Assembly (NCBI RefSeq): GCF_002931055.1
Contig: NZ_PSXX01000004.1
Location: 124,001 to 188,000, forward strand
Direction of reading: 5' to 3'
Source: Pseudoclavibacter sp. AY1H1
Lineage (GTDB): Bacteria; Actinomycetota; Actinomycetes; Actinomycetales; Microbacteriaceae
DNA length: 64,000 nucleotides
Made by a program: the position numbers and the translations under genes. Below are positions 31,284 to 36,033 of the stretch, piece after piece (position 1 is the first letter of the stretch; every line of letters starts with the position of its first letter). A model generated the notes under the pieces. That model saw only the letters and a list, made by a program, of their open reading frames with translations, was not told the DNA's origin and did no database searches.

Positions 31284-31337
31284 CCGCATTCCCGCACTCC
31301 GCCACTCCCGCATTCCTGGCGACCCGCATCGAACAGC

Positions 31338-31380
31338 ATGCATTGCAATACCTTGCATTACAAAGTAAAGTGCAATGCAT
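31338..31380 (+). promoter_or_regulatory. padR promoter with long inverted-repeat operator, leaderless start
   Basis: TTGCAA (31343-31348), a 17-bp spacer and TAAAGT (31366-31371) place transcription at about the ATG at 31379. A perfect 10-bp inverted repeat, ATGCATTGCA (31338-31347) and TGCAATGCAT (31371-31380), brackets the promoter, with an extra TTGCATT half-site at 31353. PadR proteins bind such ATGCAT-type dyads, so this is very likely the autoregulatory operator. Confidence 0.75.
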
Positions 31381-31771
31381 GACAACCTCAGTCGGTGCGC
31401 AACTCCGCAAGGGCGTCGTAGAGTACTGCGTCCTCGGACTCCTTCAACAGGGGCCCATGTACGGGTGGCTGATCTCAGAACGACTGGTCTCCCTCGGGCT
31501 CATCGGCAGCATCGGAACGCTCTACCCGTTGATGACTCGACTGCGCGAGCGCGAGCTGATCGCCGCGCACGCCGACGACTCCGATTCGGCGCGACCCCGG
31601 AAGTACTACGCCATCACCAGTCAGGGACACGCCGAGTTGGAGCAGTTCAGGTCCCAGTGGGCGCCGTTCGCCTCCGCCGTGGAGGAAGTCACGCAATCAC
31701 GAACGACCACCACCACGACCGCGAGCGACAGCATCCGCTCACGCGACCAGACGGAAGCAGGAGACCGATGA
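31379..31771 (+). CDS. PadR-family transcriptional regulator
   Basis: The 130-residue protein is a compact PadR winged helix (LRKGVVEYCVLGLLQQGPMYGW, ISERLVSLGLIGSIGTLYPL, RLRERELIAAHADD, PRKYYAITSQGHAELEQF). A polar Thr-rich tail (SRTTTTTTASDSIRSRDQ) follows. The ATG has no Shine-Dalgarno sequence and coincides with the predicted transcription start, so the mRNA is probably leaderless. Its stop overlaps the start of the HAAS-type membrane gene by ATGA. PadR repressors usually respond to small aromatic or envelope stress signals; the ligand here is unknown. Confidence 0.92.
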   Translation: MTTSVGAQLRKGVVEYCVLGLLQQGPMYGWLISERLVSLGLIGSIGTLYPLMTRLRERELIAAHADDSDSARPRKYYAITSQGHAELEQFRSQWAPFASAVEEVTQSRTTTTTTASDSIRSRDQTEAGDR

Positions 31772-32307
31772 AGCCTTTCGAATCGCAGAACGAAATCGCA
31801 GGCAGCTACCTGAAGGAGCTCCAAGCAGCGCTTCGTGATGGGGTGCCCCAGGTCCGGGACGAGGTGCTCAACGACATCGCGGACACGCTCCGCGGCCTCG
31901 ATGCCGACGAGACTCGAGTCCGCATCCGAGAGCTCGGGGCACCGAGCACGATCGCAGCCGACGCCATGGCGGAGACGCCCTCGCCCGAAGGGACCGGGCC
32001 GAGCCGCGCGTACCCGATCATCATGTCCATCGCCCTCATCGCCGGCTGGTACCTGGTGCCGGTGCTCGGCTGGGTGGCCGGACTCATCATGATCGGCTCG
32101 AGCCAGCACTGGTCGTCGCGAGTGCGCAGGAACGGCATCCTCGCGTCTGTCGCCGTGATCGCCGTCTCGACCATCGGCATCTTCGCGTTCCGCGGGACAG
32201 ACGCGTGGGTCGTCGGCGTGATCATCTTCGCCGTGCTGCCGCTCCTCGGCAACATCTTCGTCGCCGACTACCTCCGCCGCCGCTGGGCACTGCCCGGCCA
32301 GCACTAG
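31768..32307 (+). CDS. HAAS-type signalling domain membrane protein, PadR partner
   Basis: The 179-residue protein has an N-terminal helical domain (YLKELQAALRDGVPQVRDEV, DIADTLRG, TRVRIRELGAPSTIAADAM) like the HAAS domain found next to PadR regulators. Three or four membrane helices follow (YPIIMSIALIAGWYLVPVL, GILASVAVIAVSTIGIFAF, WVVGVIIFAVLPLLGNIFV). HAAS proteins are thought to act in signalling with PadR partners. It overlaps the padR stop by 4 bp, so the pair is translationally coupled. Function beyond this association is unknown. Confidence 0.85.
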   Translation: MKPFESQNEIAGSYLKELQAALRDGVPQVRDEVLNDIADTLRGLDADETRVRIRELGAPSTIAADAMAETPSPEGTGPSRAYPIIMSIALIAGWYLVPVLGWVAGLIMIGSSQHWSSRVRRNGILASVAVIAVSTIGIFAFRGTDAWVVGVIIFAVLPLLGNIFVADYLRRRWALPGQH

Positions 32308-32399
32308 ATCCGACGCACACCCGGCCCGATCTGGCCCAGCTCGACAGCTCTGCCGATGACCGATGACCGATGACCCGAACTCTGGAGGAGAATGTCGGT

Positions 32400-32903
32400 A
32401 TGCGCCTCCGTCGATTCACTCCAGTGCTGCTCGTCCCCCTCGTGCTCGCAGCACTCGTTGGATGCTCGCCCACTGCGCCCACGGAACCGGAGCCGCCGAA
32501 GTTCAAGCTCTCCCTCAACGAGGTACGCGACGCATCGCGGGAGGTGGCCGAGGGGATGGTCGCGGAGTTCCCGGAAGCAACGGGGCTCATCGAAGCCGAT
32601 CCCAACGTCTCAGCCTGCGCCGGCGAGGAACCCAGAATCGGTCGTTGGGTGTGGGCGACGACGTTCTCGTCCACCGACCTCGTGAACACCGTCACGAAAC
32701 TCCAAGAGGAGTATGGCGACGCCGTGACCTCCACGGGCACCGCGAGTGAGACGGTCGAGTATGCCGACGGCTCCACATGGCCTGCGACTGGCTCGCACAC
32801 CTTGATCGAAGACGAGACCGGGTCGTACCTCCTGAGCTACCCGGCTGGAACCGAAGGACAGGTCCTGCTTCGCGTGGTCACCGCCTGCGGAGTGCTGCGC
32901 TGA
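32400..32903 (+). CDS. Lipoprotein of unknown function
   Basis: The 167-residue protein has a basic start (MRLRRFT), a hydrophobic core and lipobox LVGC near residues 17-20, then a Thr/Pro/Glu-rich linker. The soluble domain contains two cysteines (SACAGEE and TACGVLR). GGAGGAG lies 10 nt before the ATG at 32400; an in-frame ATG at 32370 would bury the signal. It has no recognised family. It follows the PadR pair by 92 bp on the same strand and may be independent. Confidence 0.78.
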   Translation: MRLRRFTPVLLVPLVLAALVGCSPTAPTEPEPPKFKLSLNEVRDASREVAEGMVAEFPEATGLIEADPNVSACAGEEPRIGRWVWATTFSSTDLVNTVTKLQEEYGDAVTSTGTASETVEYADGSTWPATGSHTLIEDETGSYLLSYPAGTEGQVLLRVVTACGVLR

Positions 32904-32969
32904 GCATCCCGCCACCGAGACGATTCGGAACCCACGGGTCTCGCGTATCTGGGCGCTAACGCCTCCCTG

Positions 32970-33037
32970 CCGAACCCTGCTAAGTTAGGGGCAATCGTTC
33001 AGCCCGCCCGGTCCACCGGTGTGGGCTGGATTTTTTT
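32970..33037 (+). ncRNA. Candidate abiF-associated structured RNA
   Basis: Just upstream of the AbiF-like gene is a compact element: a small hairpin CCCT-GCTAAGTT-AGGG (32975-32990), a short linker, then a strong two-part stem ending in a seven-T run (33000-33037). Structured RNAs called the abiF motif have been described upstream of abiF genes in many bacteria (from memory). The position and the short-hairpin plus terminator layout fit that description. The 5' end is not visible; it could begin around 32950. A covariance search was not possible. Confidence 0.55.
33000..33037 (+). terminator. Intrinsic terminator upstream of the AbiF-like gene
   Basis: CAGCCC (33000-33005) pairs with GGGCTG (33023-33028). 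An inner CCGG-TCCA-CCGG stem extends the structure, and TTTTTTT follows at 33031-33037. True T-tract terminators are rare in this window. It ends only 19 nt before the AbiF-like start, so it either ends the small RNA or regulates entry into the gene. Confidence 0.75.
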
Positions 33038-33056
33038 GTCCGAGAGGATGCCGAGA

Positions 33057-33854
33057 GTGTCACCTTCACCGAAGAAGTACCTCACGATCGGAGAGCAGGC
33101 TCAGCTCCTCGAGAGCCGGGGCATGGAGCTCGACGGCAACCCCGAGCAGTGGCTGAAGTCGATCAACTACTACCGGTTGAGCGGGTACTGGTACACGTCG
33201 CGTCGATTCGAGACAACCGCTGAGGGCGCGCCCTCACGATCCGATCAGTTCCAACCGGGGACCAAGTTCTCAGAGGTTGCGGCACTGTACGAGCTTGACC
33301 GCAAACTTCGCTCTCTTGTACACGTCGGGCTCGAGCGGGTCGAAGTAGCGCTCCGCAGTCAGGTCAGCTACGTCCTCGGGCGCTACGGCCCCTTGTCCTA
33401 CGAGGACAAGTCCCTGTTTCGGGATGCCTTCAACCACTCGTCGTGGGTCGACAAGACGCACGAACGGGTGAAGCGGGCGGCCCGCAGATCGATGTTCATC
33501 AACCATCACATGCAGAATCACGCTGGGGTGATTCCGATCTGGGTGCTCGTCGACGTCCTCGACTTCTCGGACGTATCGATGCTCTACGACGGAATGCGCG
33601 CAACAGACCAGTTCGATGTGGCTGAAGGCATGGGTATTCGTCTCCGACTTGACCGGTTATCGCACAGGCAACGCGGCAAAGCCGTCAAGCATCATCCGTT
33701 CGCCCGGTGGCGCGAGCAGCTGACGGTCGTTCGCAATATCTCTGCCCATCATGGACGCCTTTGGAACCGCTCCCTCGTCCCGGCTGCGACAGGGGCAATG
33801 AGGACCATCGAAGAGTTGGAGAGCCTTCCTCCTGGACAGAGCGAAGATCTCTAA
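33057..33854 (+). CDS. AbiF/AbiD-like Abi_2 HEPN abortive-infection protein, truncated by an in-frame stop
   Basis: The 265-residue reading frame matches Abi_2 family proteins: NYYRLSGYWYTSRRFE (about residues 37-52), ALYELDRKLRSLVHVGLERVEVALRSQV, PIWVLVDVLDFSDVSMLY, and the HEPN ribonuclease-type motif Arg226-x4-His231 in VVRNISAHHGRLWNR. Full-length relatives carry about 55 more residues. Here a TAA at 33852-33854 ends the frame and the missing tail continues in frame beyond it. The GTG at 33057 is favoured because AGAGG lies 9 nt upstream; ATG 33048 would have no spacing. Base composition is less GC-rich than the neighbours, suggesting transfer. Known members are phage-defence proteins. 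Confidence 0.88.
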   Translation: MSPSPKKYLTIGEQAQLLESRGMELDGNPEQWLKSINYYRLSGYWYTSRRFETTAEGAPSRSDQFQPGTKFSEVAALYELDRKLRSLVHVGLERVEVALRSQVSYVLGRYGPLSYEDKSLFRDAFNHSSWVDKTHERVKRAARRSMFINHHMQNHAGVIPIWVLVDVLDFSDVSMLYDGMRATDQFDVAEGMGIRLRLDRLSHRQRGKAVKHHPFARWREQLTVVRNISAHHGRLWNRSLVPAATGAMRTIEELESLPPGQSEDL

Positions 33855-34025
33855 GGAGCGCTCGCGGTCATCGCGCAGATCTTGACAGCTGCCGCGCCCG
33901 ACTCGAATTGGGCACTCAAGGTCGCGTCGGAAGTCGAGCGCGGGTTCGCGGCGCTGCCCGGGCGGGTTGTCAGTGAGATGGGGTTTCCCGGCGATTGGCG
34001 CGATGTCGGCGTCTGGAGGGCCTGA
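33855..34025 (+). pseudogene. Orphaned C-terminal tail of the AbiF-like gene
   Basis: Directly after the TAA, in the same frame, lie 56 codons reading GALAVIAQILTAAAPDSNWA and ending MGFPGDWRDVGVWRA before a TGA at 34023. The P-x-S-x-W segment and the MGFP-x-DW ending are what full-length actinobacterial Abi_2 proteins carry at this position. A change of one base at a Tyr codon (TAC or TAT to TAA) would explain the break. No start codon with a ribosome site precedes the tail, so it is probably not translated separately. Confidence 0.8.
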
Positions 34026-34150
34026 GAAGCGCACCGTCCGCAGTGGGTCGTTTGCGCAGGATTTCCTGGGTGGGCCACACCTATCTCGCCGAGCACGCTC
34101 GCAGAGCGTCCCCTCGGAACCGGTGACCCGATCAGCGATAGCGTGATCGC

Positions 34151-34702
34151 ATGACAGGCGGCACTCTGCGTTGGGCGACCGAAGCTGATGCGCGGGCAGT
34201 CGCCATCGTGCACGTCGACTCGTGGCGAGCGGCCTACGCGGGCCTCATCCCCTCGGAGGTGCTGGCCGCCCTGAGCGTCGAGCAGCGCACCGCCGGCTGG
34301 ACACGGTGGATCGCCGCCTCCCTGCGCGGCGATGCGACGGACCTCGACGCCGTGCGCCCGCATCGGCTGCTCGTCGCCGAGGACGGGGAACGCATCGTCG
34401 GCTGGGCCGCATTCGGGCCCGGGAGAGACCCCGACGATGGGCACCGAGGGGAGCTCGGTGGCCTATACGTGCATCCAGACCACTGGTCGACGGGGGTCGG
34501 CGCTTCGCTCATCCGTCGCGCCGAACAAGAACTCCGCACGGCCGGCCACTCGGACGCCTACGTGTGGGTGCTGACGGGCAACGAGCGGGCGATCGGCTTC
34601 TACGAGCGACAGGGCTGGCGTGCGGACGGCGCCAGCAAGATCGCGGATGAGGGCAGCGCACGCGCGCTCGTCGAACTCCGACACACAAAGCCCCTGTCTT
34701 AG
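34151..34702 (+). CDS. GNAT-family N-acetyltransferase
   Basis: The 183-residue protein has GNAT features: TLRWATEADARAVAIVHVDSW, VGWAAFGPG, the acetyl-CoA loop GLYVHPDHWSTGVGASLI (RxxGxG variant WSTGVG) and YVWVLTGNERAIGFYERQGW. The last is a typical motif B with the Tyr that often acts as general acid. The acceptor is unknown. There is no Shine-Dalgarno sequence. TAGCGT at 34139-34144 would start transcription at the ATG itself, so a leaderless mRNA is likely. Confidence 0.9.
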   Translation: MTGGTLRWATEADARAVAIVHVDSWRAAYAGLIPSEVLAALSVEQRTAGWTRWIAASLRGDATDLDAVRPHRLLVAEDGERIVGWAAFGPGRDPDDGHRGELGGLYVHPDHWSTGVGASLIRRAEQELRTAGHSDAYVWVLTGNERAIGFYERQGWRADGASKIADEGSARALVELRHTKPLS

Positions 34703-34799
34703 TCATGCCGAAGAAGCGCTGACCGAGAAGGACCTGGGGCGGCTGGCCTCAGCGACGGATACGCGGGGCCAGCCGCCCGACCTGGAGGCGACGCCTGGA

Positions 34800-35636
34800 C
34801 TAGACGCCCAGCTGCCCCAGCCACTCTGCGACGGAGCGAGGCGTGATGCCGAGGCGCCGCTGCGCGCTCATCGCCTCCTCGATGACCTCGTGGGCCTGCG
34901 TGGCTCGCCACTTGTAGGAGTCGACGACGGGCGCAGCACCGGGACCGATGACACGCGCGAGGTCCTCTCCGAACGCATCCGGATCACGACTCTCGAAGCT
35001 GACCGGACGACCAAGGTGCGCTGCGAAACTCTGCGCCAGATCGTCGCCGAGCAGACCGGGGAGGGCGCCGACGCCGACGATTCCGGTGATCGCATCGTCC
35101 TGCAGCAGTCCGACGACGACGTCAGCGACGTCGAGGTGGGAGCTCCAAGAGACCGCATAGTCCGCACGGATGGGGTAGCTGAGAACGCCACGCTCCTGCA
35201 CCGACTCGACGACGAACGGCAGCAGGAGGTTCTCGAGGTAGAGGCGGGGCTGCACGATGGCGGTCGAGATCTCGGCTTCCTCGAGCCTGCGCACCAGCAC
35301 GGCGAGCGCGCTCTCTGGGTCCTCCAGCGTGTACCCGCTCGTGGAGACCACGACTCGGGCCGGAGTCGACGCCTCGGCGGCGTCGGCGACCGCGTTCGCT
35401 GCCGACAGCTGGTCGGCAGGCGATCCGATCGGCAGGTGGACGAAGATCCCCTGAACTCTGCGATACGCGTCGGCCAGCGAGGCGGCGTCGGTGAAGTCGA
35501 CGGCAACTGCCGTTCCCGGGCCGGCATAGGAGCTCGGTGTGCGAACCGCGGCAGTGACATCGAGGTCGGCCTGGGCGAGGGCTGCGATGACGGGGGCGCC
35601 CTGGGCACCAGTGGCGCCATGAATCAAGTAGGTCAT
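34800..35636 (-). CDS. NmrA-like NAD(P)-binding protein
   Basis: The 278-residue protein has the Rossmann motif IHGATGAQGAPVIAAL at the N-terminus, AVDFTDAASLADAYR, GIFVHLPIG, and the NmrA-type segment LYLENLLLPFV near residue 155. This class includes NADPH-binding sensors and quinone or isoflavone reductases (QorB-like), so it may be an enzyme or a redox sensor. It is divergent from an HxlR regulator across 64 bp containing a perfect 8-bp inverted repeat. That is a typical arrangement for an electrophile or quinone-inducible oxidoreductase. Confidence 0.88.
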   Translation of the reverse strand: MTYLIHGATGAQGAPVIAALAQADLDVTAAVRTPSSYAGPGTAVAVDFTDAASLADAYRRVQGIFVHLPIGSPADQLSAANAVADAAEASTPARVVVSTSGYTLEDPESALAVLVRRLEEAEISTAIVQPRLYLENLLLPFVVESVQERGVLSYPIRADYAVSWSSHLDVADVVVGLLQDDAITGIVGVGALPGLLGDDLAQSFAAHLGRPVSFESRDPDAFGEDLARVIGPGAAPVVDSYKWRATQAHEVIEEAMSAQRRLGITPRSVAEWLGQLGV

Positions 35637-35643
35637 GCGTCCA

Positions 35644-35693
35644 TTAGTGCACAGGATGCATCGGTTACGTCAACTGCACTAAAGGGATACGCT
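35644..35693. promoter_or_regulatory. Divergent HxlR/NmrA promoter with inverted repeat
   Basis: TTAGTGCA (35644-35651) and TGCACTAA (35675-35682) are perfect inverted repeats in the 64-bp gap. TTACGT (35665-35670), 17 bp and TACGCT (35688-35693) form a promoter whose start falls at the HxlR ATG, so that message is probably leaderless. HxlR repressors bind such spaced dyads. Confidence 0.6.
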
Positions 35694-35700
35694 CAAACTC

Positions 35701-36033
35701 ATGCCACGATGCGACGATCTCCCCGAGTGCGGTGTCGCCCGATTCCTCGTACTCCTCGAAGGGCCATGGGCCACCCTGATCGTGCGGGAACTGCTCCACG
35801 GCCCCCTCCGATTCACCGAGATCAAAGACCGCCTCCCCGGCATCAGTGCGCACACGCTCACGAACCGGCTGCGGCGCTTCGAGGCCAACGGGCTCGTCAC
35901 ACGGACGTCCTACCCGGAGATCCCGCCGAGGGTCGTCTACGAGCTGACCGAGGTCGGTGAGCAGCTGCGGACGGTCCTCGACGCCATGAACGCGTGGGCC
36001 CTGTCCGTGCCGGAAGTCGCCAACGCGGAGTGA
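35701..36033 (+). CDS. HxlR-family transcriptional regulator
   Basis: The 110-residue protein is a full-length HxlR winged helix. It has the redox-type cysteines near the start (CDDLPECGVARF), then LEGPWATLIVRELLHGPLRF, EIKDRLPGISAHTLTNRLRR, FEANGLVTRTSYPEIPPRVVYELTEVG. Two N-terminal cysteines are typical of quinone- or electrophile-sensing members such as YodB and HypR. It likely represses itself and the divergent NmrA-like gene. The ATG lies at the predicted transcription start with no ribosome site. Confidence 0.92.
   Translation: MPRCDDLPECGVARFLVLLEGPWATLIVRELLHGPLRFTEIKDRLPGISAHTLTNRLRRFEANGLVTRTSYPEIPPRVVYELTEVGEQLRTVLDAMNAWALSVPEVANAE

What the first reader, a model, noticed from the sequence alone, without database searches (positions are those of the whole stretch)
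33057..34025. AbiF-like HEPN gene interrupted by a single in-frame TAA
The frame up to 33854 has all Abi_2 hallmarks, including Arg226-x4-His231. Directly after the TAA, in the same frame and with no base lost, 56 codons read as the expected C-terminal tail (P-x-S-x-W then MGFP-x-DW). The sequence around the stop (EDL-stop-GALAV) is where relatives have a Tyr, so one base change from TAC or TAT explains it. Either the defence gene was recently inactivated, the truncated HEPN core still acts, or the stop is read through at low level.
Basis: partly seen in the sequence, partly recalled or inferred. Interest (0 to 1): 0.78.

Follow-up and report, generated by a model that had tools for sequence, protein, structure and literature searches.

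The report
Broken AbiF toxin, intact RNA antidote
A bacterial self-killing defence gene has been cut short by a stop codon while the small RNA that seems to act as its antidote is intact, and phages appear to carry copies of the same RNA among their tRNA genes.

Summary
33057-33854 encodes 265 residues of an Abi_2/AbiF HEPN protein (Pfam E 1.8e-48). An in-frame TAA follows, then 56 open codons that match the C-terminal tail of intact relatives; the stop column is Tyr in 11 and Phe in 8 of 19. The stop removes the last helices of the fold. In-frame stops in other close AbiF genes lie elsewhere, so programmed read-through is unlikely; inactivation or attenuation is favoured.

Such an RNA precedes 32 of 32 distinct close relatives and matched no Rfam family. 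By analogy with C. difficile AbiF-RCd22 it is probably an RNA antitoxin. Of 37 strong hits in family- and order-level genome searches, 10 have no AbiF. Copies also lie between tRNA genes of Rhodococcus and Mycobacterium phages, and a second AbiF RNA class does so in a viral contig: possible phage antidote mimics. Functions are inferred; nothing was assayed.

The parts
32302..34134 (.). Segment absent from a same-genus genome (G006): small lipoprotein-like ORF + RNA + abiF, an acquired cassette
   Evidence: BLASTN of the window against L232: window 31337-32301 and 34135 onward are 17 nt apart in G006; G006 has no AbiF match
32370..32903 (+). Small lipoprotein-like ORF at the left of the cassette (start not tested)
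   Evidence: ORF; match only in the own genome, 1 of 10 of the genus; lipobox read from the sequence
32981..32986 (+). -10 box TANNNT of the RNA gene
   Evidence: TANNNT at -12..-7 in 51 of 60 RNA loci, 57 of 60 with one-base shift, background 0.54% (some of the 60 are near-identical)
32993..33038 (+). AbiF-associated RNA (putative antitoxin): leader, 18-bp bulged hairpin, U tract
   Evidence: Model R1, 61.1 bits, only hit in the window; covariation; 32 of 32 distinct close AbiF relatives have it
33057..33854 (+). Truncated abiF: 265 codons and TAA; start GTG 33057 (ATG 33048 possible)
   Evidence: PF07751 1.8e-48; 8vz6 by sequence 1.7e-21
33732..33749 (+). Catalytic HEPN motif R226-x4-H231
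   Evidence: Both invariant in A1 and, as R227/H232 of L031, in A3; equivalents R202/H207 are needed for toxicity in C. difficile (PMC12373285 section 12; equivalence inferred)
33852..33854 (+). In-frame TAA (codon 266)
33855..34025 (+). Detached tail, 56 codons and TGA: the last helices of the fold in intact relatives
   Evidence: Alignment; AF2 model of intact L031: helices 266-280, 286-300, 306-309 lie after the stop position, residue 267

Best explanation
The locus is an acquired AbiF-type toxin-RNA module. A promoter at 32981-32986 makes a ~46-nt hairpin RNA that ends in a U tract; transcription that passes this terminator reaches abiF (inferred from the C. difficile pair). The RNA is probably the antitoxin that binds and silences the HEPN RNase. 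In this genome a recent nonsense mutation cut the toxin after residue 265 and removed its C-terminal helices, which disables or strongly attenuates it, while the RNA gene is untouched. It is one stage in a recurring path on which the toxin is lost and the RNA stays. Shown: gene, stop, conserved tail, covarying RNA with a fixed -10 box, its link to AbiF, solitary copies. Inferred: antitoxin function, toxicity of intact relatives, loss of activity here.
For: Tail conserved in frame; in 135 loci with the catalytic motif the median tail is 86 aa and 5 are under 60 aa: L097, L101, L103, L140 and L122, which ends at the contig end. RNA upstream of 32 of 32 distinct AbiF loci with E <= 3e-60, covarying: 97.0% of cells paired, 62 double-change cells against 16.3 in shuffles, 0 of 500. 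37 strong RNA hits (13 of 398 family and 24 more of 396 order genomes): 27 next to AbiF (window's broken one included, one at a contig end), 10 without. Remnants of the abiF start in L200 and L212; clean abiF deletion with the RNA kept in L225 against L227. Among the 32 no AbiF lacks the RNA. RCd22 silences AbiFCd in cis and in trans by binding it (PMC12373285 abstract and passages).
Against: No assay. Three separate lesions cut at nearly the same place and keep the catalytic motif (window; L005; L215/L216), as if a tail-less core were tolerated or useful. Solitary RNAs may be neutral relics; the search favours well kept copies. The scan misses tail frameshifts: it did not flag L005. Species-mates were not available.
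Confidence: 0.62

Rival explanations
1. The truncated HEPN core is a working shorter toxin or RNA-binding protein, and loss of the tail is selected (tail-less form).
For: R226/H231 and the other A1 invariants are kept; L005 and L215/L216 lose the tail at nearly the same point.
Against: Tail lengths are nearly uniform in 135 loci (median 86 aa); W286, G310 and W315 of the tail are nearly invariant in A3; the truncation removes whole helices; the window tail has not decayed beyond relatives. L215 and L216 are 99.8% identical, so they count once.
Confidence: 0.24
2. The TAA is a sequencing or assembly error and the gene is intact.
For: A single-base event in a draft genome of 25 contigs; the tail is as conserved as in intact genes.
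Against: Other lesions exist in the family, so real breakage is common. Reads were not available.
Confidence: 0.08
3. The stop is read through at low level to make the full toxin in controlled amounts.
For: The tail is open and conserved in frame.
Against: Stops in other close AbiF genes are at other codons and of other types (TAG in L033, L035, L036; TAA in L042). Suppressor tRNAs of the genome were not checked.
Confidence: 0.04
4. The upstream RNA is only the leader or terminator of abiF and not an antitoxin.
For: It ends in a terminator-like hairpin and U tract; no binding was tested.
Against: Invariant G-U and U-G pairs (31 of 31 each at columns 5-57, 7-55) and invariant leader bases are not needed for a terminator; 10 of 10 solitary copies keep the -10 box; phage copies lie between tRNA genes without a U tract role.
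Confidence: 0.2

Closest known systems
AbiFCd-RCd22 of Clostridioides difficile prophage phi027 (PMC12373285: abstract, sections 6, 7, 12 and passages seen)
   Same: Abi_2 HEPN toxin with the R-x4-H motif; RNA with own promoter and terminator directly upstream; read-through into the toxin gene there
   Different: RCd22 is ~98-132 nt with two RF03085 motifs; here one ~46-nt hairpin that no Rfam family matched; here the toxin is truncated; antitoxin action not shown here
PbAbiF-AbiFr (PDB 8vz6; review passages in PMC12737573 seen; primary paper not read)
   Same: Only significant structural match of an intact relative (E 1.4e-14, TMq 0.75); sequence match to the window (1.7e-21)
   Different: Full length and RNA-bound; the window protein lacks the C-terminal helices; the RNAs were not compared
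Rfam RF03085 (abiF RNA motif)
   Same: Upstream of abiF-like genes
   Different: No match to RF03085 in the window at E <= 5 or in 40 AbiF loci at the gathering score
Pseudo-ToxI of phage PhiTE (PMC3475682, abstract seen)
   Same: Phage-borne RNA that resembles an RNA antitoxin
   Different: There for ToxIN and shown to work; here for AbiF, between tRNA genes, untested
RNA anti-CRISPRs, solitary repeat units in viral genomes (PMC10651486, passages seen)
   Same: Solitary viral copy of a defence RNA
   Different: Mimics CRISPR repeats, not an antitoxin

Membership tests
Abi_2/AbiF HEPN proteins | Abi_2 domain | tested here: met
   PF07751 1.8e-48, residues 31-237 on profile 1-184 of 184
Abi_2/AbiF HEPN proteins | R-x4-H catalytic motif | tested here: met
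   R226, H231 invariant
Abi_2/AbiF HEPN proteins | C-terminal helices after the HEPN motif | tested here: not met
   Cut at codon 266; relatives carry them. It is a truncated member
Type III toxin-antitoxin systems | Structured RNA gene directly upstream of the toxin | tested here: met
Type III toxin-antitoxin systems | RNA binds and neutralises the toxin protein | not testable with these tools
   Known for RCd22 (PMC12373285); not tested here
Type III toxin-antitoxin systems | Toxin is an active endoribonuclease | not testable with these tools
   Motif present; activity of the truncated protein unknown
Rfam RF03085 abiF RNA | Match to the covariance model | tested here: not met
   No match; not filed as RF03085
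Programmed stop-codon read-through | Stop conserved in position among relatives | tested here: not met
Phage antitoxin mimics (PhiTE pseudo-ToxI kind) | Phage copy of the antitoxin RNA without the toxin | tested here: met
   (sequence and place only)
Phage antitoxin mimics (PhiTE pseudo-ToxI kind) | Phage RNA made in infection and neutralises the toxin | not testable with these tools
   needs experiment

The most novel reading that the evidence does not exclude
The AbiF-linked RNA is a portable antidote. It silences AbiF in trans, so genomes keep it after the toxin breaks or is deleted (window, then solitary copies), and actinobacterial phages have taken it up as a counter-defence RNA inside tRNA arrays, where tRNA processing would cut it free without a promoter of its own. 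Two RNA classes would have reached this arrangement separately (class A in Rhodococcus and Mycobacterium phages, class B in viral contig L270).
Probability: 0.45. Interest if true: 0.82.

Novelty: new variant of a known kind. Interest (0 to 1): 0.6.

Why it matters
The stop codon alone is an ordinary event. The locus, however, exposes an RNA class linked to actinobacterial AbiF that Rfam did not match. Its distribution (AbiF without the RNA 0 of 32; RNA without AbiF 10 of 37) is what an addiction module predicts and gives natural stages of toxin loss. If the phage copies are antidotes, they give a concrete example of RNA counter-defence against the toxin family thought to be ancestral to Cas13, and one possible reason for phage tRNA arrays, which a listed abstract (PMC12803027) calls a putative antidefense system.

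Tried and rejected
Programmed read-through: rejected, since stops in other close AbiF genes are elsewhere. Rfam for the RNA: no match. First genome-contig scan with the single protein: no relative found; an alignment query worked (best 80 of 570 kept, so frameshifted genes may be under-represented). A third hairpin class (pattern) had 0 viral matches. L270's RNA had no match among phage records. The viral scan gave 19 loci, of which 8 are not good R1 matches (E >= 0.049 or none). Two weak R1 genome hits (L203, L204) look like unrelated terminators; L229 and L230 (36.3 and 31.0 bits, no AbiF found) were left out of the 37 strong hits. The structural second look was unavailable. A comparison of stop rates with a control gene family was considered and not run.

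Literature: searches listed no paper on AbiF RNAs of Actinobacteria or on AbiF RNA in phage tRNA arrays. Only listings were screened, the library lacks most subscription papers, and the primary PbAbiF/Cas13 paper was not read.

Full report
Observation. The frame from 33057 gives 265 residues, TAA, 56 codons and TGA. The first part is Abi_2 (PF07751, 1.8e-48; PADLOC calls it AbiD) and matches the solved AbiF 8vz6 (1.7e-21). It is the only such match in its genome. The genus was not identified.

The tail is real. Seven of eight nearest relatives run on with the same tail and the eighth (L005) has a frameshift just past the point. In 19 intact relatives the stop column is Tyr (11) or Phe (8), and window tail identity is in the usual proportion to core identity. 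In 135 loci with the catalytic motif the median tail is 86 aa; 5 are under 60 aa, one of them at a contig end. In A3 (33 sequences) W286, G310 and W315, beyond the stop, are nearly invariant.

What the stop removes. The AF2 model of intact L031 (pLDDT 95.0, pTM 0.91) puts the stop position at residue 267, the start of helix 266-280; helices 286-300 and 306-309 follow. The only significant PDB match is 8vz6, an AbiF dimer with its RNA (E 1.4e-14, TMq 0.75). Loss of activity is inferred.

Other lesions. A scan of 189 sequences flags in-frame stops in the window and 13 loci, four of these near an alignment end or in a short match (L051, L140, L159, L188), and frame changes in L022, L101 and L186; it missed L005's frameshift. 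Among close relatives L033, L035, L036 and L042 have stops at other codons. L215/L216 (99.8% identical to each other) lose the tail by rearrangement at codons 260-263. So three separate lesions fall near codon 265 and leave the core. This is post hoc and untested statistically; it keeps the short-form rival alive.

The RNA. Directly upstream of close AbiF genes lies AA(U/C)NG-UUC-(A/G)-GCC...GGGC(U/C)GGAU plus a U-rich end. All 32 distinct loci with E <= 3e-60 have it (30 distinct RNAs and 2 duplicates). The window copy is 32993-33038. On 31 sequences 97.0% of cells pair, 8 pairs have double changes, 62 double-change cells against 16.3 in shuffles (0 of 500), and slid versions fall to 27-51% paired; the number of pairs with double changes alone is not beyond shuffles (46 of 500). 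The structure was drawn from these sequences, which favours it. A TANNNT box sits at -12..-7 in 51 of 60 loci (57 with one shift; the 60 include near-duplicates). The sigma-70 scan found no full promoter in the window, so only the -10 box supports one.

Link to AbiF. In 398 family genomes model R1 gives 13 strong hits (57 bits or more) and 2 weak; 9 of 13 lie directly upstream of AbiF. In 396 order genomes 24 further strong hits (43 bits or more); 18 have AbiF downstream, one at a contig end. In 76 loci with more distant AbiF genes R1 gives 10 weak matches (E 0.032-0.82), each just upstream of AbiF. A second class (GACCGGTTCCGC...GTCCAGGGCCGGTC) occurs once in 12 of 388 family genomes, reversed-pattern control 0; 11 of 12 are upstream of an AbiF match.

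Solitary copies. Ten of 37 strong R1 hits have no AbiF within about 1.5 kb: L190, L197, L200, L201, L207, L212, L213, L223, L224, L225. All ten keep the -10 box and at least 15 of their pairs. L200 and L212 keep a short start of abiF, and L225 differs from L227 (93.9% identical up to the RNA) by loss of abiF. None of the 32 close AbiF genes lacks the RNA. Toxin-first loss explains this; neutral relics are not excluded, because only well kept copies are found.

The cassette. In G006 (same genus, about 91% DNA identity) window 32302-34134 is missing, with 17 nt in its place; G006 has no AbiF match. A second difference (34697-36033) lies to the right, so the region is variable.

Phage copies. A pattern scan of viral contigs found 19 loci; 11 are R1 matches at E <= 4.1e-6. 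L243 and L254 have AbiF; L249 ends too soon to tell; L244, L256, L259 show the RNA without AbiF; five lie in tRNA arrays (L242, L257, L258, L245, L251). In L242 tRNA 1589-1663, RNA 1664-1701 and tRNA-Trp 1702-1776 abut. Matching records: 41 Rhodococcus phage records and 21 Mycobacterium phage records, with RefSeq/GenBank duplicates; 7 Gordonia phage records carry it outside a tRNA array. As an independent test, the abiF-linked RNA of Williamsia (L043) searched by BLASTN against 50,697 phage records hits 44, 39 of them Rhodococcus phages (best 5e-4), in the gap between the tRNAs. The reverse search in plasmids is weak (best E 0.2), but its best hit lies directly upstream of an Abi family gene (H158 with H4); three Streptomyces plasmid hits (E 0.7) were not followed. 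AbiF genes of a Rhodococcus and a Mycolicibacterium plasmid have the RNA upstream (58.8 and 63.1 bits). Class B: of 16 viral places, 8 show no AbiF in the DNA held (one of these near a contig end), and L270's RNA lies between tRNA-Trp and tRNA-Asn, L267's 5 nt before tRNA-Met. Limits: the tRNA-embedded copies score 32.7-40.5 bits, modest for a scan of this size; L251 and L258 lack part of the leader; expression is unknown.

Verdict. A truncated AbiF toxin next to an intact, probably antitoxic RNA. The stop is an ordinary loss event. The RNA class, its solitary copies and the phage copies are the part worth following.

Noticed in passing
L242:1664-1701, L245:1789-1831, L258:8733-8768, L251:137-175: AbiF-type RNA placed between two tRNA genes of phages or viral contigs (41 Rhodococcus and 21 Mycobacterium phage records).
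   Followed up: partly
L270:3395-3428 (-), L267:767-804: A different AbiF RNA class (class B) inside or beside a viral tRNA array.
   Followed up: partly
L256:3147-3203 (-); L290:1013-1069: AbiF-type RNA in Gordonia phages (Phinally, Leonard and others), between gp17 and gp18 on the opposite strand, no AbiF found.
   Followed up: partly
L225 and L227: Near-identical loci up to and including the RNA; abiF present in L227 and gone from L225, with an inverted repeat near the break.
   Followed up: partly
L215, L216: AbiF in two nearly identical loci ends within a few residues of the window's stop, by rearrangement.
   Followed up: partly
L066, L074, L089, L097, L103, L107, L110 upstream of AbiF: Another hairpin type (AACATAACCG...CAACCTTGGCGGTTTTT) before proteobacterial AbiF genes, not matched by Rfam.
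   Followed up: no
window 34697-36033: Second stretch missing from G006, so the right flank is variable too.
   Followed up: no
L287 (G104): Class B RNA in a bacterial genome with no AbiF match beside it.
   Followed up: no
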